64,000 bases of DNA from Pseudofrankia coriaricola (lineage in GTDB: Bacteria; Actinomycetota; Actinomycetes; Frankiales; Frankiaceae). Location of the stretch: assembly GCF_001854805.1 (NCBI RefSeq), contig NZ_MBLO01000025.1:1-64000 (forward strand). The letters run 5' to 3'. A program made the position numbers and the translations under genes. The notes beneath the pieces are model-generated. The model made no database searches. It was not told the origin of the DNA and was given only the letters and a program-made list of their open reading frames with translations. This document shows, in pieces, positions 3,418-63,348 of the stretch. Numbering within the stretch: the first letter of the stretch is position 1; each line of letters begins with the position of its first letter.

Positions 3418-3514
3418 CCGGACCTCCCAGCAGACCTCCCAGATCGCTTCGCGATCCGGCAGGGACCCCGGCTTCGCGATCCGGCAGGAACCCCGGGGGA
3501 CCCCGCGAGCGATC
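3418..3514. repeat. Dispersed GATCCGG/CCCCGG repeat, copy 1
   Basis: This lies between the CapA and zur stop codons. It contains GACCTCCCA blocks, CAGATCGCTTCGCGATC and two GATCCGGCAGG(G/A)A(A)CCCC units. The first 31 bases match the copy at 8873 exactly. Related blocks occur at 53531-53682, near 52130 and 51855, and inside the large element at 53897 and 54387. Confidence 0.8.
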
Positions 3515-7268: not shown

Positions 7269-9302
7269 GTGCCGATGGACGCGGATCTCGCTGAAGGCGC
7301 TGATCTCACTGAAGGTGCTGAGCCGGACACGCGGGCGGACACCAGACGGGCGCGCCGGCCCCGACGGCCGGTGGACATCGCCGTGCCGGTGGCGCTCGCC
7401 GGCGCCGTCGTCGCCGCGTTAGGCGCGCTACACGTCGTGTTGGGCCGTCCGCTCTGGTACGACGAGATCTGGCGCCCGCACTTTCTCGCCGAGCCACCGG
7501 CGACGTTCTGGCCGGAGCTCGCGCACGCGAACACCCCGTCGGCGCTGGGCTGGGCGGTGCTCACCCGGCTCGTCGGCGACCTGGCCGGCTGGCACGCCTG
7601 GGCGTTGCGCGGGCCCGAGCTGGTTGCGCTGGTCCTGCTCCCGGCCGTCGTCTATGTCTTCACCCGGCGGTTCGCCGGCGTGGTCGCGGCCGGCCTCGCG
7701 GGGGCGTCGGTCGGGCTGTCCGGGGTGATCGTCGACCTGGGTACCCAGCTCAAGCCGTACTCGGTCGAGGCGCTCGCCTCCGTCGCCATCGTCTGGCTGT
7801 GGACGGCTGGACGCCCACGGGCTGGACACCCGCGACCGGCGACGGCGTCTCGCGCTGGCGACCCGACCAGCGGGGCCGCGCCGAGCGCCCAGGGCGCCGC
7901 GACCGCGCCGGGGCGGGCCTTGCTCGCGCGCGGCGCGGCGGGGCTGGTCGCACTGTTCTCGGTGCCGGCCGCCTTCCTGGTCATTCCGCTGGCCGCCGCC
8001 GATGTGCTGACAGCCGGACGCGGGTCGCGGCGCAGGCTGACCGCGGTGCTCGTGGCGACGCCCGCGCTGGCGATCTGCGGGCTGCACACCCTGGTGTTCG
8101 TCGGCCATCAGTCCAGCCAGCGGGCCAGCCGGTTCTGGGACACCCAGTTCCTCGCGGGCCGTGGCCCGCTCGAAGCGGTCCGGTTCGTCGCGGGCGAGGT
8201 GGTCCGGATCCTCGGCGGCGCGCCGACCGGCATCGACCGCTACGACCCGAACCTGGTGCACCCGGCGACGGACACCACCTTCGCCGCCGGCTGGCTCATC
8301 GCCCCCGCCGCCGGGGTGGCCTTCGCCGTCGGGACCGTCGCGCTCGCGCGCCGTCGCGACGGGCGGCACCTGATCGCCGCGGTCGTCGGCGCGCTGGTGC
8401 TCGCGCTCGCCGCCAGCGCCGGCCGCTACTGGCCATTCGGTGCCAACCGCACCAACCTGTTCCTCGTCCCGCTGCTGGTCGTCGTCGTCGCCACCGGCGC
8501 CGACCGCCTCGCCCGCCGCCTTGCTCGCCCCGTTGTCCGCCGCCCCGCGGCCACCTACCGGCACGGCCGCCCCGCGGCCACCTACCGGCACGGCCGTCCC
8601 GTTGCCGCGGCGGCGGTGCTGGCCGGTCGGGTGCTCGTGGCGGGTGGGCTCGCCGTGCTCGCCGTGATGCCGGTGGCGTCCGCGAGCGCGTTGGCGCCGT
8701 TGTGGCGGGAGCGCGCCGAGATCCGGCCGGTGGCGCTGATGGTCGACGCGACGGAGCAGGCCCGCCGGCTCTACCAGCCGGGTGACGTCGTCATCGTTGG
8801 TGGCCGGCTGGCCCGTTCCGGCTGGCTGTACGCGATGAGCGTCAGCGACGACCGTGCCTACCAGCCACCGCCCCGGACCTCCCAGCAGACCTCCCAGATC
8901 GCTAACCTCCCAGATCGGCTCCCAGACCTCCCCGATCGGCTTCGCCAATCGGGCAGGGACCCCGGATCCGGCAGGGACCCTGTAGCCGATCCGGCAGGAA
9001 CCCCGGGCAACGCAAGCCCCACCAATCCGGCGGGAAGCCCAAACGCGCCGTCCCGCGTCGGCCCTCGCCTGCCTCAGGGCTCGACGGTCTTCCTCACCGA
9101 GGTCGGCGCCGGCGAGGGGCGCGTGGCGTTGGCGGCGCGCCAGGGCCCGCCCCCGAGCCGCGTCCTGCTGTTCGTCCTCGTCTACGACCGCTCGGGCACA
9201 CGGGCGGAGCTCGCCGACCTGCGCGCCGCGGGCTGGTGCCCATCGGAGGCCTTCGACTTCCCGAACACGGGAACCTTGAACGTCCTGACGCACTGCCTGT
9301 AG
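7269..9302 (+). CDS. Polytopic membrane protein, glycosyltransferase-39/ArnT-like
   Basis: About 677 residues with many hydrophobic segments. After the first membrane segment (VDIAVPVALAGAVVAALGALH) comes LWYDEIWRPHF, which resembles the acidic first-loop motif (DE) of GT39/GT83 lipid-linked sugar transferases. Further membrane segments occupy roughly residues 100-450 and a soluble tail follows. GTG 7269 has GAAGGTAGA upstream. The frame continues to ATG 7146, but that extension runs through the DnaA-box cluster, so I prefer the shorter form. Two oddities are visible: a perfect 27-bp tandem duplication encoding PAATYRHGR twice, and a dispersed repeat giving the Pro/Asp/Arg-rich insert TSQQTSQIANLPDRLPDL...DPAGTPGN before the final domain. 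The substrate is unknown. Confidence 0.65.
   Translation: MPMDADLAEGADLTEGAEPDTRADTRRARRPRRPVDIAVPVALAGAVVAALGALHVVLGRPLWYDEIWRPHFLAEPPATFWPELAHANTPSALGWAVLTRLVGDLAGWHAWALRGPELVALVLLPAVVYVFTRRFAGVVAAGLAGASVGLSGVIVDLGTQLKPYSVEALASVAIVWLWTAGRPRAGHPRPATASRAGDPTSGAAPSAQGAATAPGRALLARGAAGLVALFSVPAAFLVIPLAAADVLTAGRGSRRRLTAVLVATPALAICGLHTLVFVGHQSSQRASRFWDTQFLAGRGPLEAVRFVAGEVVRILGGAPTGIDRYDPNLVHPATDTTFAAGWLIAPAAGVAFAVGTVALARRRDGRHLIAAVVGALVLALAASAGRYWPFGANRTNLFLVPLLVVVVATGADRLARRLARPVVRRPAATYRHGRPAATYRHGRPVAAAAVLAGRVLVAGGLAVLAVMPVASASALAPLWRERAEIRPVALMVDATEQARRLYQPGDVVIVGGRLARSGWLYAMSVSDDRAYQPPPRTSQQTSQIANLPDRLPDLPDRLRQSGRDPGSGRDPVADPAGTPGNASPTNPAGSPNAPSRVGPRLPQGSTVFLTEVGAGEGRVALAARQGPPPSRVLLFVLVYDRSGTRAELADLRAAGWCPSEAFDFPNTGTLNVLTHCL
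8541..8594 (+). repeat. Perfect 27-bp tandem duplication in the membrane-protein gene
   Basis: CGCCCCGCGGCCACCTACC... at 8541-8567 is repeated exactly at 8568-8594. It adds nine residues in frame (PAATYRHGR) in a loop between membrane segments. Confidence 0.9.
8873..9008 (+). repeat. Dispersed GATCCGG/CCCCGG repeat, copy 2, in frame inside the membrane-protein gene
   Basis: It starts with the same 31 bases as copy 1 at 3418. It then has GATCGGCT and GATCGGCTTCGCCAATCG blocks and GATCCGGCAGGGACCC / GATCCGGCAGGAACCCC units. It adds about 45 codons of low-complexity sequence without a stop. Confidence 0.85.
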
Positions 9303-9815: not shown

Positions 9816-9873
9816 GCCGTCCGGGCGCTGGACGCGCCGGGCCGCCTCGGGGCCGGGTTTGGGCGGGAAGGTT

Positions 9874-10475
9874 GTTGCTGGTTCGCTCCGTGCGGGCGGC
9901 GCGCTCCGGCCCCGTACTCGCTTCGCTCCCACGGGACCTCCGCGCGCCGTCCTCCTGCGCTCACGGGCGCTGCGGCGACCTCGCTGCGGCCCCCCTACGT
10001 CGCTTCGCTCGTAGGAGGGCCTCCGCGAGGCGCGCCTCCGCGCCCAGCCCGGTTGCGTTTCGCTGGAACGTCACGAGTCCAGGGTCCGGCCTGATCTGAA
10101 GCCAGATTCCTGCGGGGAACCACCGACCAGACGCGAAGCCCACCTCACGAGCGCAGCGAAGTGCTTCCCGGTACCAGCCCTGGCCTAGTCCGGCGGGAGG
10201 TGACCGTGCTGGGTGCGGAGGCCCGGCCGCGAGCGAAGCGACGTGGCCCTGCCGAGATGGCGGCTTCGGGTTGGCGACGTACAGCGTGACGCAACCGTGC
10301 TGGGCGCGGAGGCGCGCCTCCGCGGAGGCCTGCCTACGAGCGAAGCGACGTAGGCGGGCCGCAGCGGAGGTCGCCGCAGCGCCCGTGAGCGCAGGAGGAC
10401 GCGGCGCGGAGGTCCCGTGGGAGCGAAGCGAGTACGGGGCCGGAGCGCCGCGCCCGGACGGAGCGAACCAGCAAC
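9874..10475. repeat. Large inverted-arm repeat element, copy A
   Basis: GTTGCTGGTTCGCTCCG (9874-9890) is matched by its exact reverse complement at 10459-10475. The flanking arms are imperfect inverted repeats for about 195 bp each (about 9874-10065 and 10285-10475), with roughly a dozen differences. They include CCGTACTCGCTTCGCTCCC, the short palindromes TACG-TCGCTTCGCTCG-TA and GCCTCCGCGGAGGC, and many GCGAAGCGA words. The middle of about 220 bp has no credible gene. No transposase frame is present, so if mobile it would need help in trans. Confidence 0.8.
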
Positions 10476-22357: not shown

Positions 22358-23005
22358 GTGCGGGTCGTGATCGCCGAGGACTCGGTGCTGCTGAGGGAAG
22401 GGCTGTCCCGCCTGCTGACCGACGCGGGCTGTGAGATTGTGGCAGCGGTCGGTGACGGTCCTGCCCTGGTTGAGGCGATCGCCGCCCACCGACCGGACGT
22501 CTCGGTTGTCGACGTGCGAATGCCGCCGTCGCATCGCGACGAGGGGCTGCGGGCCGCGATCACGGCCCGCTCCACCGTGCCGGGCTCGCCGGTGCTGGTG
22601 CTCAGCCAGTACGTCGAGAAACAGTACGCGGCCGAGCTGCTCGCCGACGGCGCCGGCAGCATCGGCTACCTGCTCAAGGACCGTGTCGCCGATGTCCGGG
22701 AGTTCGTCGAGGCCGTCCGGCGGGTGGCCTCGGGCGGCACCGTGATGGATCCCGAGGTGGTCGCGCAGCTCCTCGTCCGCACACGGCGCGACGACCCGAT
22801 GGCCTCTCTGACCCCGCGTGAGCGCGAAGTGCTGCGGCTGATGGCCGAGGGCCGCTCGAACGCGGCGATCGCCGGCGAGCTGGTGGTGAGCGCCGGCGCC
22901 GTCGAGAAACACATCTCCAACGTCTTCTCCAAGCTGGGCCTGGAGGCATCCGGCAGCGACCACCGCCGCGTGCTCGCCGTCCTCACCTACCTCCGCGAGT
23001 CCTAG
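22358..23005 (+). CDS. NarL/LuxR-family response regulator, orphan
   Basis: 215 residues. The receiver domain has the acidic pocket in VIAEDSVLLREGL, phospho-acceptor Asp about residue 52 in VSVVDVRMPP, the Ser/Thr position in VLVLSQYVE and the Lys in GYLLKDRV. The C-terminal LuxR helix-turn-helix is SLTPREREVLRLMAEGRSNAAIAGELVVSAGAVEKHISNVFSKLGL. GTG 22358 follows GGGAGGACTC. No histidine kinase is adjacent, unlike the pair at 41.5-43.7 kb whose regulator is clearly similar. The gene is followed by a strong hairpin. Confidence 0.88.
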   Translation: MRVVIAEDSVLLREGLSRLLTDAGCEIVAAVGDGPALVEAIAAHRPDVSVVDVRMPPSHRDEGLRAAITARSTVPGSPVLVLSQYVEKQYAAELLADGAGSIGYLLKDRVADVREFVEAVRRVASGGTVMDPEVVAQLLVRTRRDDPMASLTPREREVLRLMAEGRSNAAIAGELVVSAGAVEKHISNVFSKLGLEASGSDHRRVLAVLTYLRES

Positions 23006-23018
23006 GCCGAAGTCGCGC

Positions 23019-38258: not shown

Positions 38259-39038
38259 ATGGCCGCCCCCGAGCCCGCGTCCACCCGGCCGCGGCCCATC
38301 CAGCCAACAACGCATCAGCCGCGCCCCGGCCAGGCACCGCCCGGCCATCCGCACCCGGCTCGCGTCCCGGCGGAGACCGATACCCAGCTCGGCGCCGACC
38401 TCGCCGCGGTGCGCCGCGGCTACGGCGGTGGACGGCTCGAGGAGGGCGATCTGGCACCGACCTGGATGGAGCAGTTCGCGCGATGGTTCGCTGACGCGGC
38501 CGCGGCGGGCTCCGGAATCGTCGAACCGAACGCGATGGTGTTCGGTACCGCCGACGCCGCCGGGCGCCCGAGCGCCCGCACGGTGCTGCTGAAGGGCTTC
38601 GGCGCCGAGGGCTTCTTGCTGTTCACCAACTACACCTCCCGCAAGGGCACGGAAAGCGCCGCCAACCCGCACGGGAGCCTGGTCTTTCCCTGGTACGCGC
38701 TGGAACGCCAGGTGATCGTGGTTGGCACCGTGGAACGAGTGTCCGCGCAACGTTCCGCCGAGTACTTCCACTCCCGCCCGCGGGGCAGCCAGCTGGGCGC
38801 CTGGGCCAGCCACCAGTCGGCGGTGCTCTCGTCGCGAGCCGAGCTGGAACGCCGGGACGCGGAGCTTGTCGAGCGCTGGCCGCCGGGGACGCCGATCCCG
38901 GTCCCGCCGTTCTGGGGCGGGCTGCTCGTGGTCCCGGAGACGGTCGAGTTCTGGCAGGGCCGCCCCGACCGCCTACACGACCGCCTCCGCTACCGCCGCG
39001 CCGACGACACCTGGCTGGTCGAACGCCTCGCGCCTTGA
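38259..39038 (+). CDS. pdxH: Pyridoxamine 5'-phosphate oxidase
   Basis: 259 residues, FMN enzyme that makes pyridoxal phosphate. Core motifs: LAAVRRGYGGGRLEEGDLAPTWMEQFARWFADA, RPSARTVLLKGFGAEGFLLFTNYTSRKGTE (FMN and substrate binding), LVFPWYALERQVIVVGTVERVS, YFHSRPRGSQLGAWAS (RPxGSQ signature) and FWQGRPDRLHDRLRYRR, with W-L-V-E-R-L-A-P at the terminus as in the family. About 45 Pro/His/Arg-rich N-terminal residues are extra relative to the usual about 215. ATG 38259 is the only good start. Repeat element B begins 3 bp after the stop codon. Confidence 0.92.
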   Translation: MAAPEPASTRPRPIQPTTHQPRPGQAPPGHPHPARVPAETDTQLGADLAAVRRGYGGGRLEEGDLAPTWMEQFARWFADAAAAGSGIVEPNAMVFGTADAAGRPSARTVLLKGFGAEGFLLFTNYTSRKGTESAANPHGSLVFPWYALERQVIVVGTVERVSAQRSAEYFHSRPRGSQLGAWASHQSAVLSSRAELERRDAELVERWPPGTPIPVPPFWGGLLVVPETVEFWQGRPDRLHDRLRYRRADDTWLVERLAP

Positions 39039-39041
39039 CAT

Positions 39042-39586
39042 TGGTTCGCTCCGTGCGGGCACGGCGCTCCGGCCCCTTACTCGCTTCGCTCCCAAGGGAC
39101 CTCCGCGCCGTGTCCTCCTCCGCGAACGTGCCCTCCGGCGACCTCCGCTGCGGCCCAACCACCTTCGCTTCGCTCGGTGGCCGGGCCTCCGCGGAGGCGC
39201 GCCTCCGGGCCAGCACGGTTGCTTTGCGCTCGGACAGCGCGGGACCACATAACCGTGTGCGGGGCCACTTCGCTTCGCTCGTGGGGTGGGGTTCGCTCCC
39301 GACCGACCGGTACGGGAGTGCTTGGCCCGGTACCGGTCCAGACACCCACGAGCGAAGCGAAGTGGCCTACGGATGTGCCGCTTTGGGTTGGTGACGTTCA
39401 GCGGCGGGTGACCGTGCGGGCGCGAAGGCGCGCCTCGCGGAGGCCCGGCCCCGGAGCGAAGCGAACGGGGCCGGGCCGCAGCGAGGTCGCCGTAGCGCCC
39501 GTGAGCGGAGGAGGACGGCGCGCGGAGGTCCCGTGGGAGCGAAGCGAGTACGGGGCCGGAGCGCGCCGCCCGCACGGAGCGAACCA
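39042..39586. repeat. Large inverted-arm repeat element, copy B
   Basis: TGGTTCGCTCCG (39042-39053) is mirrored by CGGAGCGAACCA (39575-39586). The arms share the element's standard order (TACTCGCTTCGCTCCC, GGGACCTCCGCG, CGACCTCCGCTGCGGCCC, GCCTCCGCGGAGGCGCGCC). It fills the gap between the pdxH and gltA stop codons, leaving 3 bp on one side and 47 bp on the other. Its sequence diverges more from copy A in the left arm. Confidence 0.8.
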
Positions 39587-39633
39587 GCAACAACCTTCCC
39601 GCCTGACCCCAGACATGTCCCGGAGCGAACCAG

Positions 39634-41542: not shown

Positions 41543-42247
41543 CTACCGCGGGCCGGCGGGAGGCGGGCCGGCGGGCGGGTCGGCGGCCGGGTCGACATCG
41601 GCCTGCGCGCGCAGCCAGGCCAGCACGGCCAGCACCCGGCGGTTGTCGTCCGCCGCGATCGGAAGGTCCAGCTTCGCCAGCAGGCTCGCGACGTGGTTCT
41701 CCACGGTCTTCGGCGCCAGGTGCAGCGCGGCGCCGATGCCCTGGTTCGACCGTCCCTCGGCCATGTGACGCAGCACAGTCCGCTCACGGTCCGTCAGCCG
41801 GGCGAGCGCGCTCGCCCGGCGGCGGTGCGCGAGCAGCGGGGCGACGATCTGCTCGTCCACCACCAGTCGGCCCGACGCGACCCGGCGCAACGCGTCCAGC
41901 AGCGTGTCGACGTCGTCGACCCGGTCCTTGAGCAGGTAGCCGACGCCGCCGAAGCCGTCACCGAGCAGCCGTACGACATGCGGCGTCTCGGCGTACGTCG
42001 ACAGCACCACCACGCCGACCCCCGGGTAGGTCGCGCACAGCCTCTCGGCGGCCCGCACGCCCTCATCGGTGAAGGTCGGCGGCATCCGGATATCGAGGAT
42101 CACCGCGTCCGGGGGGTCGGCGTCGACGGCGGCCAGCAGCTCCTCGGCCGTCCCCGCGGCGACCGTCACCTCGATACCGGCGTGGCGCAGGAGGAGGACC
42201 AGACCCTCCCGGAAGAGGGCCGAATCGTCGGCGACGGCTACCCGCAT
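41543..42247 (-). CDS. NarL/LuxR-family response regulator paired with the upstream histidine kinase
   Basis: 234 residues, ATG 42247. Receiver domain: VAVADDSALFREGLVLLLRHAG (acidic pocket), phospho-acceptor Asp in DAVILDIRMPPTFTDEG, VVLSTYAETP and GYLLKDRV. LuxR DNA-binding domain: RLTDRERTVLRHMAEGRSNQGIGAALHLAPKTVENHVASLLAKLDL. The last about 20 residues are Pro-rich (DPAADPPAGPPPAGPR). It closely resembles the orphan regulator at 22.4 kb. The kinase lies 212 bp upstream on the same strand, an unusually wide gap for a two-gene operon. Confidence 0.88.
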   Translation of the reverse strand: MRVAVADDSALFREGLVLLLRHAGIEVTVAAGTAEELLAAVDADPPDAVILDIRMPPTFTDEGVRAAERLCATYPGVGVVVLSTYAETPHVVRLLGDGFGGVGYLLKDRVDDVDTLLDALRRVASGRLVVDEQIVAPLLAHRRRASALARLTDRERTVLRHMAEGRSNQGIGAALHLAPKTVENHVASLLAKLDLPIAADDNRRVLAVLAWLRAQADVDPAADPPAGPPPAGPR

Positions 42248-49737: not shown

Positions 49738-52700
49738 TCACCCGGATGGGGCGCTCCAGAGGGGGGCGATCGCCTCGTCGTCGAGGTCGTCCTCGGCGTC
49801 GCGGAAGGCCGTGCCGTCGGGGTCCCGCAGGGCCGCGGCCAGGGCGTGCCGGCGGTGCCAGGTGCCGGCCCGCCAGGCGAGCGCGCGGGCGAGCGCGTCG
49901 GTGCCGGCCGCGGCATCGACGTGGACCTCGCCGCCGATGCCGCCGACCACACGCCAGGGCGTGTGCGCCGGTCGGCCGGCGAGGTCGGCGACCACCAGCC
50001 GGGCGTGCTCGACGTACGGCGTGCCGTCCGGCGCCTGCCGCTCTGCCGTGTTGTAAGGACCATCGAGGACGGCGCAGTCGGCGGACGCCGACGCGAGTGG
50101 CACCCCGAGCACGTGGCCGATCTCGGCCGCCCGGTCGAGCGGCACCCGCAGCGGCGCCGCGTCGCCGAGCAGGGTGAGCAGGTCCGGGGCGTCCAGGACG
50201 ACGGCGTCGCGGGTGGGGACGACTCCCCGCGGGGTGCGCACCGTCAGCGGCGGGTCCAGCCGGCCGTCGGCGAGCCCACCGCCCGGCTCCCCGTCCGGGC
50301 CGGCGGCCAGCCGGGTCGCGGCGGTCACCGCGGCGACGTAGAGCGCCCTGGCGGACGGCCACGGAACGTCCCGGTCGACGTCACCGAGCCTGTCGAGCAG
50401 GTCGAGCACACCGGCGACGTCGCCGAGGACGTCGCCCAGGGTCAGGCGGCAGCCGAGCGCGCGCAGCAGCTCGGCGTCCACCCCGGGCAGCGGTGCCGCC
50501 GGGGCGAACAGCCCCGCGAGCAGCGGGTCGGCGCCGGGCAGCCGCAGCTCCGGCGGTGGCAGCCGGACCGTCCCGCCGCGGCCGCCGGCAAAGCCGAAGC
50601 CCTCCCGGTCATACCGGTCCCGGTCGTCGTAGTCGTCCTCGCCGGTGCCGCGGTCGGCATCGGCGTCGGCATCGGCGTCGGCGGCCGCGTCGGTGTCCCG
50701 CGCGCTCGCGATCGGCAGCAGCGCGTGCCGGGCGAGCCACCAACGGGTGTATGACGGCTCGTCGTCGAGCACGATCCCGCGCAGCGGCGGCTGAGCGAGC
50801 TCGGCGAGCGCCTCCGGCCAGGCAGCCGGATCCACCAGCTCCAGGTCGCGCACGGCGGCGAAGCCTGCGAGCACCACCGGAGCGCCGCGGCCGCCGGCGC
50901 GGGCCGCCGCGGCCCTCGCCGTCGCGAGCGCCGGCGACTCGACAGCCTCCTCGACCCAGGTGTCGCTGTCGTCGAGGTCGAGCAGCACGGGTTCGTCCGG
51001 GTCGAGCGTCACGTCGCTCGCGTAGAGCACCCCGAACGTGCGCAGCACGCCGACGGCCTCCAGCACGCTCGTCGACCAGGCGTCGGTGATCTCCGGTGCC
51101 AGGATGCCGAAAGGCGTGTCACCCGCGACCAGGCGGTCCAGTGGGCCGTCCGCGATCAGCAGCTCGGCGGACGGGACGAACTCGCTCTCGGTGTCCGGCA
51201 GGAGCAGCTCGCCGAGCCAGTCGAGCCCAGCGGCTGTGTCCGCCGGGCTCAGGTCCGCGTCGCGGACCAGCGCGAGCACGGCCGCGGCCAGCGCCAGCAG
51301 CTCCTCCGGGTCGTCGTCGGGGTCGGAGTCGACGACCGCCTCGTGTACCGCCGGGTCGCGCAGCACGCCGGCCGGCGTGCCCTCCACCGCCCCGAGGGTG
51401 CGCAGCGCGTCCCTGGCCGCACCGAGGCAGGCGTCCGGATGCACGACCCGCAGCGGCAGCCCGGAGGCGGCGAGCGCCATCACGTCCAGCCCCTCGGTGG
51501 GCAGCAGCACCCCGCGCGGCCCGGTGACCATCCGCACCCGCAGGGCCGGCCGATCGCCCACGGCGCCCGCCGCGCCGTCGGGATGGTCGCCGCCGTCGGC
51601 GACCGTCGCGACCGGCACCGGCAGGGCGCCGAGGGCATCCCGGTCCGGCGCTGTGATCAGAGCCGCGTACAGCGACGACCACCAGGCCGGGGGCCTGCGC
51701 AGGCCCGCGAGCACGTCCACCAGGCCGGCGCTGTCGAGCCGGCGCACGCCGAGCGCGTCCAGCGCGCGCCGCCAGTGCCGGGCGGCGTAGCGCGCCGGGA
51801 GCAGTCCCGCGACAGGGCTCTCCCGGGAGTCCTCGGCGGCAATCTCGGGACCCGGGGTTCCTGCTGGGCTGGAGGCGACGCCCTGGTCGGACACGACGGC
51901 CCCGCCAGCGGCCGGGGAGAGCAGGGCGGTCACGGCGTCGGTGGCCGGGCCGAGGTCGCAGACGACGCATTCTCGGCCGAGCCGGCCGCCCGGCATCATC
52001 CCGACCTCGGGCAGCATCCGCGCCACGGCGTCGCGCAGCCGGCCGTCCACGGGACCGGCGGGCAGCCCGGACGGCACCAGCTCCAGTGCCGCCAGCGGGT
52101 CCGGCGGGATCACGACCTGTTCGATCGGCTCCGCCGATCGAACAGGAACCCCGGGGTCCGCGCCGATCGGTGCGGGGCTGTGCCCTTCACCGGAGGCCGG
52201 GCCCGACGCCGCGAACGCGGCGAACAGGTCCTCGCCCCGGCCTTCGCCGTCGCCGCCCGGCGCGGGCGTGCCATCGGCCGTCGCATCGACATCGGCGTCG
52301 GCGGCACCCAGGTGGACGGCGAGGGCGACGACCGCCTCGGCGAGGCGGTCGGTCAGCCAGTCGCGCAGCGGCCCCGCGACCGTGTGCCGGCGGGAGGGCT
52401 CCAGCGGCAGCTCGACGCTGGCCAGTACCGGTAGGGACAGGGGCTCGTCGGTTGGCTGCGGCGCGCGGACCACCTTCGGGACAGACGCCGGCCAGCCGCG
52501 GTCGCGCACCATCGCGCGGGCCGCGTAACCGGTCCTCGCCCGCTCCTCGACGGGCCTGTCCGCGAGCAGCGCCGCCGGGATCGTGCCCCGGCGCACGCAG
52601 CCGCGCCAGCGTTCCCCGTCGAGCAGCGCGATCTCCAGCGCGGCGTCCAGCGGCATGTCCGCGGGATCGGCCGGGTCGCCGTGGTGGGCGTCGGCGATCG

Positions 52701-53763
52701 CCGCCGGCGGCTCGCCGACCGACTCGTCGCCCGCGGTGTACTCCCAGTGGCAGGTGTGCGTCTGGACGTCGCCGTCCAGGTCGAGGACGGCCTCGACCAG
52801 GCCGGGCAGGACCAGCAGGAGCGTGGGGTCGAAGGCGGCCAGCAGCTCGCGGGCGGTCGTGGCGGCCTCGGCATCGCGCAGCGGGAGCCGGACGACGGTG
52901 TCGTAGCCGTCCGGTGGCGGCTGCTCGTCCACCACGGCGAACGGCAGCCGCAGTGTGGGCGCCGCGCCGTCGCGGCGGGCGAGCTCGGCGCGCAGCCCGG
53001 CGGCGCCGATCTCGTGGACGGCGGCGACCGTCCATTCCTTGGACCAGCGCACGCCGCGTGCGGACGCCGGCGGGGCCCCTTCGGACGGGCCTTCCGCCGG
53101 GCCTCCTGGCGTTTCTTCGCCGATCCGGGTCATGGCCGGGTTCCGCGAGACGATCGACGGCTCGTCGCTGACGGCGAGCACGGCGGCGAACCCGGCGCCG
53201 AACCGGCCGATGGCGCCGGTATCCCGCTTGGCCGAGGCGCGCAACGTGCTGAGCGCCTCCACGCCGGCGGCGGTTAGTGGCGCGCCGGTGTTCGCGACCT
53301 CCAGCTGGTCACCCGCGAGCCGGATCAGCACCCGGCCGGCGACCCCGGCGACCGCGGCCGCATCCACCGCGTTCTGCAGCAGTTCGGCGACGAGGCGGTC
53401 ACGGTAGGCGCCGAGCGCCGCGTCCTCCTCGGCGTTGGCGTCCTCTCGGAACCGGGCCGGCGACGCCGCCCAGGCGTCGAGCACCCGCCCTCGGATGGCC
53501 GCCGTCCCGAACGGATCGCCGACCTCCCGGATCCGGGGTCCCTGCCCGATTGGCGACAGGGTCCCTCCTCGATCGGCGGACGGGGTCCCTGCCGGATCGG
53601 CGAAGCCGATCGGGGAGGTCGTGATCGGGGAGGTAGGCGATCGGGGAGGTTCGGGAGCCGAGCCGGGAGGAACCCCGGGGTTCACCGGCTCGTCGGCCGG
53701 CCCAGCCGCCGCGGCGGAGCCAACCGCCGGCCCGTCGACCGCGTCCAGATGCGTCGCTTCCAC
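49738..53763 (-). CDS. Sacsin-type Hsp90-like ATP-binding protein, 1341 residues
   Basis: Very large cytoplasmic protein with an N-terminal GHKL (Bergerat) ATPase fold. The domain begins GDPFGTAAIRGRVLDAWAASPARFREDANAEEDAALGAYRDRLVAELLQNAVDAA, where ELLQNAVDA is the N-box that binds Mg-ATP. It continues with LEVANTGAPLTAAGVEALSTLRASAKRD (the G1 box, with Asn in place of Asp) and GRFGAGFAAVLAVSD (G2). The remaining about 1000 residues are alpha/beta with many Leu/Asp/Pro segments and no named domain. Relatives exist in Streptomyces with the same start (DPFGT); function is unknown to me. GTG 53763 is the only plausible start. The first about 80 residues, before DPFGT, are encoded by a dispersed repeat. 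Two smaller repeat blocks interrupt the frame near 52130 and 51855. Confidence 0.8.
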   Translation of the reverse strand: MEATHLDAVDGPAVGSAAAAGPADEPVNPGVPPGSAPEPPRSPTSPITTSPIGFADPAGTPSADRGGTLSPIGQGPRIREVGDPFGTAAIRGRVLDAWAASPARFREDANAEEDAALGAYRDRLVAELLQNAVDAAAVAGVAGRVLIRLAGDQLEVANTGAPLTAAGVEALSTLRASAKRDTGAIGRFGAGFAAVLAVSDEPSIVSRNPAMTRIGEETPGGPAEGPSEGAPPASARGVRWSKEWTVAAVHEIGAAGLRAELARRDGAAPTLRLPFAVVDEQPPPDGYDTVVRLPLRDAEAATTARELLAAFDPTLLLVLPGLVEAVLDLDGDVQTHTCHWEYTAGDESVGEPPAAIADAHHGDPADPADMPLDAALEIALLDGERWRGCVRRGTIPAALLADRPVEERARTGYAARAMVRDRGWPASVPKVVRAPQPTDEPLSLPVLASVELPLEPSRRHTVAGPLRDWLTDRLAEAVVALAVHLGAADADVDATADGTPAPGGDGEGRGEDLFAAFAASGPASGEGHSPAPIGADPGVPVRSAEPIEQVVIPPDPLAALELVPSGLPAGPVDGRLRDAVARMLPEVGMMPGGRLGRECVVCDLGPATDAVTALLSPAAGGAVVSDQGVASSPAGTPGPEIAAEDSRESPVAGLLPARYAARHWRRALDALGVRRLDSAGLVDVLAGLRRPPAWWSSLYAALITAPDRDALGALPVPVATVADGGDHPDGAAGAVGDRPALRVRMVTGPRGVLLPTEGLDVMALAASGLPLRVVHPDACLGAARDALRTLGAVEGTPAGVLRDPAVHEAVVDSDPDDDPEELLALAAAVLALVRDADLSPADTAAGLDWLGELLLPDTESEFVPSAELLIADGPLDRLVAGDTPFGILAPEITDAWSTSVLEAVGVLRTFGVLYASDVTLDPDEPVLLDLDDSDTWVEEAVESPALATARAAAARAGGRGAPVVLAGFAAVRDLELVDPAAWPEALAELAQPPLRGIVLDDEPSYTRWWLARHALLPIASARDTDAAADADADADADRGTGEDDYDDRDRYDREGFGFAGGRGGTVRLPPPELRLPGADPLLAGLFAPAAPLPGVDAELLRALGCRLTLGDVLGDVAGVLDLLDRLGDVDRDVPWPSARALYVAAVTAATRLAAGPDGEPGGGLADGRLDPPLTVRTPRGVVPTRDAVVLDAPDLLTLLGDAAPLRVPLDRAAEIGHVLGVPLASASADCAVLDGPYNTAERQAPDGTPYVEHARLVVADLAGRPAHTPWRVVGGIGGEVHVDAAAGTDALARALAWRAGTWHRRHALAAALRDPDGTAFRDAEDDLDDEAIAPLWSAPSG
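53531..53682 (-). repeat. Dispersed GATCCGG/CCCCGG repeat, copy 3, in the sacsin-like gene
   Basis: GATCCGGGGTCCCTGCC, GATTGGCGAC, GATCGGCGAAGCCGATCGGG and GGAGGAACCCCGGGG blocks occur in the opposite orientation to copies 1 and 2. They encode PPRSPTSPITTSPIGFADPAG and neighbouring low-complexity residues. Related shorter blocks lie at about 52123-52170 and 51850-51870. Confidence 0.8.
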
Positions 53764-53896
53764 TGCTCTATCTTCGCCACTGCCTCCTGCGGCTGTGACA
53801 TTGGTTCGCTCCGTGCGGGCTGTATTTCTGGTTCGCTCCGTCCGGGCGCGGCGCTCCGGCCCCGTACTCGCTTCGCTCCCACGGGACCTCCGCGCC

Positions 53897-53939
53897 CGGG
53901 GTTCCTGCCGGATCGCGCCAGCGATCTGGTAGGTCCGCC
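53897..53939. repeat. 43-bp GATC-family block nested in the left arm of element C
   Basis: It starts CGGGGTTCCTGCCGGATCGC and ends GGTAGGTCCGCC. It replaces a few bases relative to the same place in copies A and B. Confidence 0.85.
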
Positions 53940-54386
53940 TCCTCCGCGAACGTGCGCTGCGGCGACCTCCGCTGCGGCCCCCCTACGTCGCTGCGCTCGT
54001 AGGAGGGCCTCCGCGGAGGCGCGCCTCCGCGCCGCACGGTCACCTGCCGCTGTACGTGGCCAACCCGAAGCCGTCATATCGGTGGGGCCACGTCGCTTCG
54101 CTCGTGGCCGGGCTCGCGAGCGAAGCGACGTGCCCCACGGAGACGGCTGATGTGGTCTCGCATCGTTCAAGCGGACCGCAACCGAGCTGGCGCGGAGGCG
54201 CTACGAGCGAAGCGGAGTGGCTCCCGCAAGGCTCAAGCTCTGGATCGGGTCGGTCCTGGTTTGGTGACGTCACAGCGAAAGGTGACCGTGCTGGCGCGGA
54301 GGCGTGCCGCCGCGGAGGCATCCCCACGAGCGAAGCGACGTGGGGGTGCCGCAGCGGAGGTCGCCGTAGCGCACGTGAGCGGAGGA

Positions 54387-54429
54387 GGCGGACCTACCAG
54401 ATCGCTGGCGCGATCCGGCAGGAACCCCG
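54387..54429. repeat. 43-bp GATC-family block nested in the right arm of element C
   Basis: Exact reverse complement of 53897-53939, joined to arm sequence at the mirror-image position. Confidence 0.85.
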
Positions 54430-54507
54430 GGCACGGAGGTCCCGTGGGAGCGAAGCGAGTACGGGGCCGGAGTGCCGTGCCCGGACGGAGCGAACCAGAA
54501 TTACAGC

Positions 54508-55353
54508 ATGGGACGAGCGGGCGCGCGGCGGCCGGATGATCCTCGGCTGGCGGAGGCCTTCACCCGGCAGTGGGATCTGATCGTGGCCGGCGTCGATGCG
54601 TTGGATGACGCGCTTTTCGCCGCCTCCAGCGCGCTGCCCGGTTGGACGACAGCCGACCTGGTGGCGCACTGCGCCCGGTCCGGTGGGGCGCTGGCGCGTG
54701 CGCTCATCGACGCGCCGCCCACCCCGACGGCCGCCGCTGCCGGCCGGGGGGAGGCCCGTGCGAGCGACGCCGGTGTGGCAAACGCCGTCGAGTATGTGGG
54801 CGGGGTCGGTGCCCGTGCCGAGGCGATCGCGGACACCGCCCGCTCGGACGCCGCGGGCATGTCCCCGAATGACCTGCGCTCCCTGCTGCGGGCGGCGGTG
54901 GCCGCGTCGCGCGGCGCCCTCACGGCCGCGACCGTTGACCAGCCCGCCGGGCAGACAGCCTGGGACCTGGTGGCGACCTCGCCTGGCGGGCCGATCCGGC
55001 TGGGCGACTTCGTCGTGACCAGGTGCGTCGAGGGGGTCGTGCACGGCCTGGATCTCGGGCTCGCGCCGGACCGGGACGCGCTGCGTGTCGTGACGCGTCT
55101 GCTCGTCGATCTGCTGGCGGTTCGGGCACCCGGCCGGTCCGTCGAGGTCCGGGTGCCGCCGTTCGCCGCCGCGCAGGTGGTCGAGGGCCCCCGGCACACC
55201 CGTGGCACCCCGCCGAACGTCGTCGAGGCCGACCCGGTCGCCTTCGTCGCGGTGGCCGCCGGGCGGCTGGACTGGTCGGCGGCGCTGGCCGACGGCCGTG
55301 TCACGGCCAGCGGTGAGCGTTCCGACCTGCGTCCCTACCTCCCGCTCCTGTAG
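54508..55353 (+). CDS. Maleylpyruvate isomerase N-terminal domain protein (mycothiol-dependent, DinB-like)
   Basis: 281 residues, ATG 54508. The N-terminal DinB-like four-helix bundle contains LAEAFTRQWDLIVAGVDALDDALFAASSALPGWTTADLVAHCARSGGALARAL, with the metal-ligand His in VAHC and a later His in EGVVHGLDLG. The C-terminal half (VEVRVPPFAAAQVVEGPRHTRGTPPNVVEADPVAFVAVAAGRLDW) is the small SCP2-like alpha/beta domain common in this family. Members use mycothiol or act as metal-dependent transferases; the substrate is unknown. The start codon is only 10 bp from the end of element C, so its promoter must be inside the element. The ribosome binding site is poor. Confidence 0.82.
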   Translation: MGRAGARRPDDPRLAEAFTRQWDLIVAGVDALDDALFAASSALPGWTTADLVAHCARSGGALARALIDAPPTPTAAAAGRGEARASDAGVANAVEYVGGVGARAEAIADTARSDAAGMSPNDLRSLLRAAVAASRGALTAATVDQPAGQTAWDLVATSPGGPIRLGDFVVTRCVEGVVHGLDLGLAPDRDALRVVTRLLVDLLAVRAPGRSVEVRVPPFAAAQVVEGPRHTRGTPPNVVEADPVAFVAVAAGRLDWSAALADGRVTASGERSDLRPYLPLL

Positions 55354-55671: not shown

Positions 55672-57609
55672 ATGACCAAGGGGACGGCCGCCGCTTCCGG
55701 TTCGGACGACCCTCGCTCCGCCGGCCCCCGTTCGTCCACTGGCCGGGTGGCCGGCACTGGCCGGGTGGCCGGCGCCGCCGGCCGGGGCCGCGTGGACCAG
55801 AACTGGGACCTCGAGCTGCGCGACGCCGCCGGCCCTCAGGACGCCTGCGGGGTGTTCGGGGTCTGGGCGCCCGGCGAGGACGTCGCGAATCTCACCTACT
55901 ACGGCCTGTACGCCCTGCAGCACCGCGGCCAGGAGGCGGCCGGCATGGCCGTCGCCGACGGCCGCGCGATCCTGGTGTTCAAGGAGCTGGGGCTGGTCGC
56001 CCAGGTGTTCGACGAGCGGACGCTGTCGAGCCTGTCCGGGCATCTGGCCGTCGGGCACACCCGGTACTCGACCACCGGCTCGTCCACCTGGGAGAACGCC
56101 CAGCCGTCGTACCGCACCGCCCGGCTGGGCCAGGGCGTCGCGCTCGCGCACAACGGCAACCTGACCAACATCATGGAACTGGCCGAGAAGCTCGGTGACG
56201 ACCGGGACGCCGGCATGCACGCCACCACTGACTCCGACCTGATCACCGCGCTGCTGGCCAACCACCCCGGCCCGACACTGGTGGACGCGGCGCTGGACAT
56301 CCTGCCCCGCCTGTGCGGCGCGTTCTCGCTGGTCTTCTCGGACGCCTCGACGCTGTACGCCGCCCGCGACACCCACGGCATCCATCCGCTCGTGCTGGGC
56401 CGCCTCGACAGCCGCGCCGACGAACAGGCCGAGCGGTCGGCCGCCGCCGACACGGACGGCGTGGGCGCGCCGGTCGCGGCCGGCCGGGACGTCTCCGGCC
56501 ATGACGGTTTCCCACCTGTTCAGCCTGGCGGTGGCCCGGCGGTGGCGGCCGGGGCCTGGGTGGTGGCCAGCGAGACCTGCGCGCTCGACATCGTGGGCGC
56601 GACGTTCGTGCGCGAGGTGGAGCCGGGCGAGCTGGTCGTCATCGACGCGGACGGGCCGCGCTCGCTGCGCTTCGCCCCGGCCGACCGGCACGGCTGCCTG
56701 TTCGAGTTCGTCTACCTGGCTCGCCCGGACACGACGATCGCCGGTCGCTCGGTGCACGCCACCCGGGTCGAGGTCGGGCGGGCCCTTGCCCGCGAGGCCC
56801 CGGTCGACGCCGACCTGGTCATCCCGGTGCCGCAGTCCGGTGTGCCGGCCGCCGTCGGCTACGCGGAGGCGTCCGGTATCCCGTTCGGCGAGGGGCTGGT
56901 CAAGAACTCCTACGTCGGGCGGACGTTCATCCAGCCGTCCCAGACGATCCGCCAGCGGGGCATCCGGCTGAAACTGAACCCGCTGCGCGAGGTGATCGAG
57001 GGCCGCCGGCTCGTCGTCGTCGACGACTCGATCGTGCGCGGCAACACCCAGCGCGCGCTGGTGCGGATGCTGCGCGAGGCCGGCGCCGCCGAGGTCCACA
57101 TCCGTATCTCCTCGCCGCCGGTCCGCTGGCCATGCTTCTACGGCATCGATTTCGCCACCAGGGCCGAGCTGATCGCCAGCGGTGCGGGGGTGGAGGAGGT
57201 ACGGGAGTCGCTCGGCGCGGACTCGCTCGCCTACGTCTCGCTGGATGGCCTGGTCGCCGCGTCCCGCCAGCCGGCGAACGAGCTGTGCCGGGCGTGCTTC
57301 GACGGCATCTACCCAGTGCCGCTGTCCGACTCTGATCGGTTGGGTGGCAAGCACCAGCTGGAGGCGATGGGCAGCGGCGCGGCCACCGGCAAGGCGCTCG
57401 CCGAGGCGTTCCGCCGACAGGTCGTGGCCGGCATGAACGGCGCGGACCCGTCACCCGACGACCTCGACGAACTGGCCGGCATAGACACGTTCGAGGGCAT
57501 CGAGGATCTGGCCCGCCTGGACGCGTCGTCGACGGCTCCGACGATGCCGGCGGGGCGCGTGGGTGGCGCGGGCGCCGGTGTCGCGCCCGCCGGAAGCGTC
57601 CGGCCGTGA
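55672..57609 (+). CDS. purF: Amidophosphoribosyltransferase
   Basis: 645 residues; first committed step of purine synthesis (glutamine + PRPP to phosphoribosylamine). The Ntn glutaminase domain starts at Cys59 in DACGVFGVWAP after a propeptide of 58 residues, longer than usual. YYGLYALQHRGQEAAGMAV, GHTRYSTTGSSTWENAQP and ALAHNGNLTN are the glutamine-binding motifs. The phosphoribosyl domain has the PRPP loop VVVDDSIVRGNTQRALV, preceded by FIQPSQTIRQRGIRLKLNPL and QSGVPAAVGYAEASGIP. A Cys-containing end (ELCRACFDGIYP) fits a 4Fe-4S-type enzyme. About 45 low-complexity residues (SRADEQAERSAAADTDG...PGGGPAVAAG) are inserted before WVVASETCALDIVGA. ATG 55672 has GAGGAG upstream. Confidence 0.94.
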   Translation: MTKGTAAASGSDDPRSAGPRSSTGRVAGTGRVAGAAGRGRVDQNWDLELRDAAGPQDACGVFGVWAPGEDVANLTYYGLYALQHRGQEAAGMAVADGRAILVFKELGLVAQVFDERTLSSLSGHLAVGHTRYSTTGSSTWENAQPSYRTARLGQGVALAHNGNLTNIMELAEKLGDDRDAGMHATTDSDLITALLANHPGPTLVDAALDILPRLCGAFSLVFSDASTLYAARDTHGIHPLVLGRLDSRADEQAERSAAADTDGVGAPVAAGRDVSGHDGFPPVQPGGGPAVAAGAWVVASETCALDIVGATFVREVEPGELVVIDADGPRSLRFAPADRHGCLFEFVYLARPDTTIAGRSVHATRVEVGRALAREAPVDADLVIPVPQSGVPAAVGYAEASGIPFGEGLVKNSYVGRTFIQPSQTIRQRGIRLKLNPLREVIEGRRLVVVDDSIVRGNTQRALVRMLREAGAAEVHIRISSPPVRWPCFYGIDFATRAELIASGAGVEEVRESLGADSLAYVSLDGLVAASRQPANELCRACFDGIYPVPLSDSDRLGGKHQLEAMGSGAATGKALAEAFRRQVVAGMNGADPSPDDLDELAGIDTFEGIEDLARLDASSTAPTMPAGRVGGAGAGVAPAGSVRP

Positions 57610-58790: not shown

Positions 58791-58821
58791 ACGGGCGTAG
58801 ACCTACCTCGCACCGTCCAAG

Positions 58822-59114
58822 CGTGACGCACCCGTGCGGCGCGGAGGCGCGCCTCCGCGGAAGCCCGGCCACGAGCGAAGCGATGTGCCCCCGCGAACGT
58901 GGTCGTCTTCGGTTTGGTGACGTCACAGCGGCGGGCAACCGTGCTGGGCGCGGAGGCGCGCCTCCGCGGAGGCCTGCCTACGAGCGAAGCGACGTGGGCG
59001 GGCCGCAGCGGAGGTCGCCGTAGCGCACGTGAGCGGAGGAGGACGGCGCGCGGAGGTCCCGTGGGAGCGAAGCGAGTACGGGGCCGGAGCGCGCCGCCCG
59101 GACGGAGCGAACCA
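58822..59114. repeat. Single-armed repeat element, copy D
   Basis: It contains two successive right-arm segments (GGCGCGGAGGCGCGCCTCCG at about 58840 and again at about 58947) and one right terminus CGGAGCGAACCA (59103-59114). The left inverted arm is absent. It ends 5 bp before the DUF3073 stop codon. Confidence 0.8.
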
Positions 59115-59119
59115 GAGAC

Positions 59120-62505: not shown

Positions 62506-63096
62506 GCATCGACCAGTTCGGTACATGGTTTCCTGTTTGCCATCTTTCGGGTGGCTTCCCGCTAGCCCGCGTGACAACGGGCGCGCCATGTACCGACGGG
62601 GTGGGTGTCCGGTACGGCACGCCGACCTGCCAGCACCGACGACCCCGGTCGAAGGGCGGGGCCGTCGGGCTATCCGGCGTGCTTTACCGGCAATGTGCTC
62701 GCCCGTCCCACCGATTCGCCAGACCTCGCCAGGGTTGTCCGGCCAGGTCGACGCTGCCGCTCCAGGCAGACGGATCGGCGGGACCCCGGGGCGCCTGGCA
62801 GGCGCCCCGGTGGCCTGCGAATCTCCAGGCGTTCGAGGGGTGCCCGGCCCGGCCTTGACCGGCTGCCGGGCACCCAGCTCCCCCGCTCCTGTCCCTGCTT
62901 CTGATCGAAGCGGTCTGACCCACGCGACCCGCCGGGCCGATCATCGGCCCAGTACGGCGGGCGCGTGCCGGTCAGCTGTTCAGCAAGGCACCACATGGAC
63001 GACGGGCGGCGCGCCCCAGGCGCGCCGCCCGATCTCGTCTCCGGGCCGTTCTCGGCAGCTGCCCCCGCGGCTATGCGAGTGCTATGGCTCTGGGTT
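62506..63096. other. Noncoding region after bldC with three strong hairpins
   Basis: Three stems are visible. The first is CCGGGGCGCCT (62786-62796) with its reverse complement at 62800-62810, loop GGC. The second is GGGTGCCCGG (62838-62847) with CCGGGCACCC (62866-62875). The third is GGGCGGCGCGCC (63004-63015) with its reverse complement at 63019-63030, loop CCA. No supported gene lies in these 591 bp. Confidence 0.7.
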
Positions 63097-63292
63097 GGTG
63101 ACCTGACGCCGCGGGTGACCGTGCGGCGCGGAGGCGCGCCTCCGCGGAGGCCCGGCCACGAGCGAAGCGACGTGGTTGGGCCGCAGCGGAGGTCGCCGTA
63201 GCGCCCGTGAGCGGAGGAGGACGGCGCGCGGAGGTCCCGTGGGAGCGAAGCGAGTACGGGGCCGTAGCGCGCCGCCCGCACGGAGCGAACCA
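63097..63292. repeat. Single-armed repeat element, copy E
   Basis: It is a right arm only, running from about 63097 through GGAGGCGCGCCTCCGCGGAG, GCCGCAGCGGAGGTCGCCG and GCGAAGCGAGTACGGGGCC to CGGAGCGAACCA (63281-63292). The left inverted arm is missing. It ends 56 bp upstream of the GAF-EAL start codon. Confidence 0.8.
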
Positions 63293-63348
63293 AAGACAGA
63301 GAGGTGGCCAACCCGGGCATCGGGGGAATGCTGCTTTGGGGGTGAGCC

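What the first reader, a model, noticed from the sequence alone, without database searches (positions are those of the whole stretch)
53897..54429. The same 43-bp block sits at mirror positions in both arms of element C
53897-53939 and 54387-54429 are exact reverse complements, and the flanking arm sequence shows the same junction on both sides. Copies A and B lack the block. Two independent insertions at equivalent sites are unlikely. A simpler reading is one insertion followed by arm-to-arm copying (gene conversion, or replication through a hairpin or cruciform), so the arms are kept alike by an active process.
Basis: partly seen in the sequence, partly recalled or inferred. Interest (0 to 1): 0.75.

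Follow-up and report, generated by a model that had tools for sequence, protein, structure and literature searches.

The report
Mosaic hairpin repeat with mismatched arms
The 43-base block really is present in both arms of a palindrome-like repeat, probably through a short copying event, but the repeat family as a whole does the opposite of what was proposed: the two arms of an element are less alike than two arms taken at random.

Summary
In detail: 53897-53939 and 54387-54429 are exact reverse complements (exact run 54 nt); copies A and B lack the block. Element C belongs to a modular intergenic repeat family found in 7 of 8 genomes of its Frankia-lineage genus. Each arm is a chain of local hairpins (M1, M2, inner) with strong compensatory covariation. 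The block belongs to a second, hundreds-copy hairpin family; in 7 of 7 block arms among 53 complete elements it sits at the M1/M2 junction. Near-identical partners are depleted, and arms are least alike in short elements. Orthologous arms keep no locus memory; M1 and M2 assort almost freely. The block is the exception: two elements carry it in both arms with matching loops (P=0.009), and C's core occurs nowhere else in its genome within 3 mismatches. A short arm-to-arm copy of the block alone is the likeliest reading, though an arm of another species carries nearly the same block. Best filed as a REP/BIME-like mosaic family with dissimilar arms.

The parts
53792..53827 (+). left outer end: two tandem copies of the terminal motif with TGGTTCGCTCCGT
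53828..53896 (+). left arm, module M1 (outer hairpin); 69-nt exact match to the right arm of element A (10403-10471)
53897..53939 (+). block, left copy: 13-bp hairpin, member of a second dispersed repeat family
53938..54033 (+). left arm, module M2; 96-nt exact match to the right arm of the element at G000:C259:93547 (L037)
54034..54280 (.). inner modules and centre between the arms
54281..54386 (-). right arm, module M2; its own partner M2 ranks only 45th of 105 arms
54387..54429 (-). block, right copy, exact reverse complement of the left copy
54430..54498 (-). right arm, module M1; with the flank to 54511 an 82-nt exact match to the SAME arm of G000:C259:93547
54499..54507 (-). right outer end, next to the ATG at 54508 of the rightward ORF
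9862..10475 (.). element A, no block
39026..39603 (.). element B, no block
58807..59116 (.). element D, one recognisable outer arm
63086..63293 (.). element E, one recognisable arm; absent at the orthologous site of G005

Best explanation
Element C is one of several tens of dispersed, modular, palindrome-like intergenic elements in its genome. Each arm is an independent unit of local hairpins (M1, M2, inner modules). Modules are exchanged among arms, with the M1/M2 junction as a near-free exchange point, fast enough that orthologous arms in sister species are no more alike than random arms (shown). The two arms of one element are not homogenised; near-identical partners are missing, and arms are least alike in short elements (shown). 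The likely cause is that long, closely spaced, near-perfect inverted repeats are lost or selected against (inferred). The block is an optional hairpin module of a second repeat family that sits, in all 7 block arms of the 53 elements, at the M1/M2 junction (shown). In element C one arm most likely held it first and a short templated event (polymerase template switch or short-tract conversion) copied it to the equivalent junction of the other arm without making the arms alike (inferred). The arms probably act as structured RNA or terminators at gene ends (inferred).
For: Family: 139 outer-end matches in the own genome, tandem ends included; 118 arm hits and 35 complete pairs in fetched loci; 86 ends in G006. 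Arms less alike than random: 35 elements of G000 0.8002 vs 0.8146, P=0.0004; 14 of G006 0.7999 vs 0.8234, P=0.0018; all 53 P=0.0002; conditioned on genome and flank type, 0 of 4000 shuffles reach it for the whole arm and for M1, P=0.001 for M2. M1 stem types A/G paired in 29 of 53, 18.8 expected, P=0.0007 (classes chosen). Identity of 0.88 or more: 2 of 53 within vs 10.9% between; shared exact run of 55 nt or more: 1 of 53 vs 11.0% of sampled pairs. Shorter elements have less alike arms, Spearman 0.34, P=0.012. Orthologous arms 0.803, own partner 0.806, cross 0.807 in 13 comparisons at 11 loci. M1-M2 Mantel r 0.13 (P=0.047) against 0.64-0.66 within modules. Block: core only in C in its genome; double in 2 of 53, P=0.009; the modules beside the two blocks match different arms that lack it. 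Local stems: 17 of 41 pairs with compensatory double changes, slid controls 1-7.
Against: G005 goes the other way (3 elements, within 0.8148 vs 0.7962), though only 3. The whole distribution of longest shared runs does not differ (P=0.35). In element C itself the M1 modules of the two arms rank first or second for each other (3 differences), which allows a longer copied tract. The double-block statistic rests on 2 elements. An arm of G001 carries a block with only 2 mismatches to C's core at its M1/M2 junction (L113), and G001 and G003 each have a related block just after M2 in an arm (L114, L115), so C's block type is not confined to C across the genus and could have been drawn twice from a pool. 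Copying was not seen happening; no RNA data.
Confidence: 0.65

Rival explanations
1. General arm-to-arm homogenisation: gene conversion or replication through a cruciform keeps both arms of every element alike.
For: Block identical in both arms of C and 1 nt different between the arms of the G006 element in L116.
Against: Arms of an element are less alike than random; partner is best match in 1 of 70; no concerted signature in orthologous elements: own partner 0.806, cross 0.807, orthologous 0.803. In G005 alone, 3 elements, the direction is the proposed one.
Confidence: 0.05
2. Two independent insertions: the M1/M2 junction is a preferred target of the mobile block family, and both arms of C were hit separately.
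For: 7 of 7 block arms in the 53 elements have the block at this junction in one orientation; the block family has 356 matches to an 18-nt word at up to 2 mismatches; 3 of 5 block elements carry it in one arm only.
Against: The 43 nt are identical and the core has no other copy within 3 mismatches in the genome, while block loops differ between elements.
Confidence: 0.12
3. Crossover at the block: an inversion of the centre between the arms, with conversion of the block, produced both copies at once.
For: One arm of C259:93547 is split in C exactly at the block: its M1 and flank (82 nt exact) are in the right arm, its M2 (96 nt exact) in the left arm. In the L116/L124 ortholog pair the M1b-plus-block arm lies on opposite sides.
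Against: Across the family such trans combinations are not enriched (4 observed, 13.8 expected at 97% identity; 91 vs 102.6 at 95%); free M1/M2 assortment gives the same picture.
Confidence: 0.2
4. Element C was put together from two arms or modules that already carried this block (pool sampling), with no copying inside C.
For: Arms and modules have moved between loci; an arm of G001 has nearly the same block at the same junction.
Against: No third copy of this block exists in the own genome; the modules beside the two blocks match arms that lack it.
Confidence: 0.2

Closest known systems
REP sequences and bacterial interspersed mosaic elements (BIMEs)
   Same: Palindromic units in opposite orientation, mosaic composition, high copy number, preference for gene 3' ends, preserved pairing (abstract and passages of PMC2817692 and PMC3733652).
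   Different: Arms of about 250 nt with several hairpins instead of 20-40 bp units; no Y1_Tnp (RAYT-type) transposase found in G000-G006; partner arms are significantly dissimilar.
BOX elements and similar modular bacterial repeats (recalled, no call)
   Same: Modular hairpins with optional and repeated modules in intergenic space.
   Different: Two head-to-head arms; no sequence comparison was made.
Inverted-repeat homogenisation by template switching (PMC8604942, PMC8794818, PMC7202029; abstract starts seen in the listing)
   Same: Could explain the short copy of the block and the well-kept local stems.
   Different: That process makes arms alike; here arms as a whole are less alike than random.

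Membership tests
REP/BIME | high copy number, extragenic, palindromic units in opposite orientations | tested here: met
   139 outer-end matches; 35 complete head-to-head pairs in the fetched loci
REP/BIME | preference for gene 3' ends | tested here: met
   outer end next to a gene 3' end in 66 and a 5' end in 33 of 115 arm ends examined, 16 unassigned (P=0.001); home-made gene caller
REP/BIME | cognate RAYT (Y1 tyrosine transposase) in the genome | tested here: not met
   PF01797 in 0 of the 7 genomes G000-G006; 1 in G007, which gave no element match
REP/BIME | GTAG or CGTC tag at one end of a 20-40 bp unit | not tested
   not examined
MITE | terminal inverted repeats and presence/absence at orthologous sites | tested here: met
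   C, B and E lacking in sites of relatives, E with a clean short site in G005
MITE | target-site duplication and a cognate transposon | tested here: inconclusive
   no clear duplication by eye in the sites read; no source transposon sought beyond Y1_Tnp
homogenised inverted repeat | arms of one element more alike than arms of different elements | tested here: not met
   opposite sign in the 3 elements of G005
known RNA family (Rfam 15) | match above gathering score | tested here: not met
   window 53600-54600: three matches, all far below gathering scores

The most novel reading that the evidence does not exclude
A bacterial palindrome family whose two arms are actively or selectively kept different: module shuffling across the genome erases locus memory, while a filter removes elements with matching arms, most strongly when the arms are close, so that each arm folds on its own as a structured unit. 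Against this background single modules such as the block can still jump between arms.
Probability: 0.35. Interest if true: 0.65.

Novelty: new variant of a known kind. Interest (0 to 1): 0.5.

Why it matters
Inverted repeats are usually expected to homogenise their arms. Here are over 50 natural elements in which the arms are less alike than chance while local stems are kept by compensatory changes, so the balance between arm-to-arm copying, palindrome instability and selection for local folding can be measured directly. The family also turns over fast between sister species, which may help strain typing in this Frankia-lineage genus.

Tried and rejected
Cargo idea: the 3.2 kb between two arms at C33:34010-37214 holds ordinary ORFs (NUDIX-like and CTP-synthase-like, named by eye from the translations), so it is two separate arms, not a larger transposon. 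RAYT mobilisation: no Y1_Tnp in G000-G006. Known RNA family: none in window 53600-54600. Two structurally distinct ends as the cause of dissimilar arms: flank types pair as expected by chance (24 mixed, 26.0 expected) and conditioning on them changes nothing. Frequent inversion between arms: trans combinations are not enriched. The whole distribution of longest shared runs does not differ (Mann-Whitney P=0.35); only its upper tail is depleted. Allele-by-allele concordance on 35 elements was weak: the lowest value was P=0.039 for the M1 stem, 6 concordant against 10.5 expected, among 13 features. The length-identity correlation was tried on three slices; M1 alone is not significant (P=0.37). 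Strand: G.U exceeds A.C on the inner-to-outer strand, but the fold computed on the other strand shows the same on its own pairs (338 against 30), so this count does not settle the strand. Literature: nine searches, read as listings of at most 15 papers each, showed no title or abstract start describing this family; passages of two papers were read; most subscription papers are not in the library.

Full report
What was checked. The two 43-nt stretches are exact reverse complements, inside an exact run of 54 nt and arms of 215 nt that are 93% complementary with 259 nt between them. Copies A and B carry no block.

The family. A search of the own genome (G000, 11.2 Mb, 280 contigs) with element C gave 190 matches with 40 of 397 candidates scored. 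The 16-nt outer-end motif occurs 70 times forward and 69 reverse with up to 1 mismatch, against 0 and 1 for the reversed control; some arms have two such ends in tandem. G006 has 86 matches to an 18-nt form, control 0. Of 41 genomes searched, at most 13 candidates scored in each, 11 match: 7 of 8 in the genus including G000, and 4 of 17 in other genera of the family with best E-values from 7e-4 to 2e-9. G003's contig 11 has the same length (117,411) as NODE_10 of Frankia sp. AgB1.9, whose locus was found with the window's protein at 55672-57606 (I take it for PurF by recall), so the host is a Frankia-lineage actinobacterium; the name Pseudofrankia is recalled, not tested. In the fetched G000 loci an HMM found 118 arm hits, giving 35 pairs within 1.1 kb. 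With G006 (14), G005 (3) and G002 (1) there are 53 complete elements. Single arms and pairs beyond the distance cut-offs were left out of all pair tests; not every end listed was fetched.

Anatomy. Arms begin with TGGTTCGCTCCGTSCGG and contain an outer hairpin M1, a second hairpin M2 and more variable inner modules. On 105 of the 106 arms the consensus fold of the inner-to-outer strand has 41 pairs, 17 with compensatory double changes seen in at least two arms each; sliding the partner by 1-3 columns gives 1-7. The fold of the other strand has 38 pairs, 11 with double changes. On mostly Watson-Crick pairs the inner-to-outer fold has 122 G.U and 12 A.C cells, but the other strand's own fold also favours G.U (338 against 30, all pairs). 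Single-sequence folds of element C's right arm lean to the inner-to-outer strand with RNA parameters: M2 z -4.2 against -2.1, M1 -2.6 against 0.07; with DNA parameters the difference is smaller, M2 -2.7 against -1.7, M1 -0.6 against -0.3. The word GCTTCGC occurs 117 times in the left 250 nt of the 53 elements and GCGAAGC once, so the inner-to-outer strand carries GCGAAGC; that d(GCGAAGC) is a very stable DNA mini-hairpin is recalled. The block is a 13-bp hairpin whose better strand is the opposite one (RNA z -5.2 against -3.1).

Position. Of 115 arm ends examined with a simple GC-frame gene caller, 66 lie next to a gene 3' end, 33 next to a 5' end, 16 unassigned; within 150 nt the counts are 62 and 19. 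Of the 66, 32 begin within 13 nt of the stop codon. Element C is atypical: it lies between two ORF starts (49738-53763 on the minus strand and the ORF whose ATG is at 54508).

Gain and loss. Sites were read by eye from the alignments. Element C is absent in G006, G001, G002 and G004; G005, the closest genome (97% protein identity over the best segment), keeps a short remnant with both outer ends. B is absent in G006, G001 and G002. E is absent in G005 with a clean short site. A is present in G006 and absent in G001 and G002. D is present in G005 and G006 and absent in G001, G002 and G004.

Homogenisation test. Within-element arm identity is lower than between elements in G000 (0.7997 vs 0.8142, 35 elements; on the larger alignment 0.8002 vs 0.8146, P=0.0004). 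Because near-perfect palindromes may break short-read assemblies, the test was repeated in G006, which has two contigs: 0.7999 vs 0.8234, P=0.0018, 14 elements. G005 with 3 elements goes the other way (0.8148 vs 0.7962). The effect sits in M1 and M2, not in the inner part, and survives conditioning on genome and outer-flank type. Two common M1 stem types are paired A with G in 29 of 53 elements, 18.8 expected (P=0.0007; classes chosen, where the stem gave P=0.039 on 35 elements). High-identity partners are missing: 0.88 or more in 2 of 53 against 10.9% of between-element pairs, though the longest shared runs as a whole do not differ. M1+M2 are less alike in shorter elements (Spearman 0.34, P=0.012; M2 0.39, P=0.003; M1 alone 0.13, P=0.37). 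So the arms are not kept alike; the missing tail and the distance effect fit loss of, or selection against, closely spaced near-perfect inverted repeats, or selection for each arm to fold on its own.

Turnover. In 13 ortholog comparisons at 11 loci (one of them three-way), orthologous arms are 0.803 identical, the two arms of one element 0.806, crosswise arms 0.807 (a first set of 9 at 7 loci gave 0.807, 0.820, 0.810). The between-element mean is 0.815 within G000 and 0.8135 between G000 and G006. Arms carry no measurable memory of their locus. M1 and M2 similarities hardly correlate (Mantel r 0.13, P=0.047; across the junction 0.12, P=0.10), while halves of one module do (0.66, 0.64). The M1/M2 junction, where the block sits, is therefore an exchange point.

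The block. An 18-nt word of its left end has 174 and 182 matches with up to 2 mismatches in G000, control 0: it is a second dispersed repeat family, with further copies in the window at about 3430-3497, 8889-9009 and 53523-53650. A pattern that already assumes the junction and orientation finds 11 places in 9 genomes: 5 in G000 (one, C213:66000, not read), 4 in G006, 2 in G005. A scan of the 53 elements without that assumption, both strands, up to 3 mismatches, finds 10 places: 7 perfect ones, all at the M1/M2 junction in one orientation, and 3 with 3 mismatches elsewhere that I take for chance. Outside this set, G001 has a block with 2 mismatches to C's core at an M1/M2 junction (L113), and G001 and G003 each have a related block just after M2 (L114, L115), so the place is preferred, not unique. 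Among the 53 elements both arms carry it in C and in the G006 element of L116, one arm in three others; P=0.009 for two doubles. The two blocks differ by 0 nt in C and 1 nt in L116, with identical loops. The 29-nt core of C has no other place in G000 within 3 mismatches. At the L116 locus the G005 ortholog has the block in one arm only, and that arm's M1 is identical to the G006 arm now on the other side, which suggests exchange between sides and a gain of the second block in G006, though the direction is not proven; the G000 ortholog has none.

Mosaic of C. Left M1 (69 nt) is identical to element A's right arm; left M2 (96 nt) and right M1 plus flank (82 nt) are both identical to one single arm of C259:93547, where they lie 4 nt apart; these three breakpoints fall at the edges of the block. 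M1 of the two arms of C are nevertheless close to each other (3 differences). This fits copying of a short tract around the block, or a crossover at the block; family-wide trans combinations are not enriched, so the crossover reading stays a rival.

Comparison with the literature. Abstracts and passages of PMC2817692 and PMC3733652 describe REPs and BIMEs as abundant palindromic mosaics, often downstream of genes, with preserved pairing and G.T pairs. The present family works like these but has long multi-hairpin arms, no Y1_Tnp enzyme in the genomes that carry it, and dissimilar partner arms. The abstract start of PMC8604942 (listing) says template switching homogenises inverted-repeat arms; here that is at most a local event.

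Noticed in passing
window 53523-53660: An array of block-family repeats lies inside the N-terminal part of the long ORF 49738-53763 and is missing in the G005 ortholog (7 nt there against 124).
   Followed up: partly
G000 contig ends, e.g. C24, C30, C118, C210, C238, C261: Several contigs begin or end inside or close to these elements, so the family probably breaks short-read assemblies.
   Followed up: no
G006: Outer ends are unevenly spread: only one between about 2.91 and 6.42 Mb of its main contig.
   Followed up: no
outer flanks of arms: Two kinds of outer flank: a short GCTGTRTTTC-like end and a longer GGTCGGGCGGGAAGGTTGTTGC-like spacer; element D in G005 has a further M1 outward of the spacer.
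   Followed up: partly
window 22636-23015 and 41593-41969: An inverted pair of 392 aligned nt at 71% identity, unrelated to the elements; perhaps paralogous genes.
   Followed up: no
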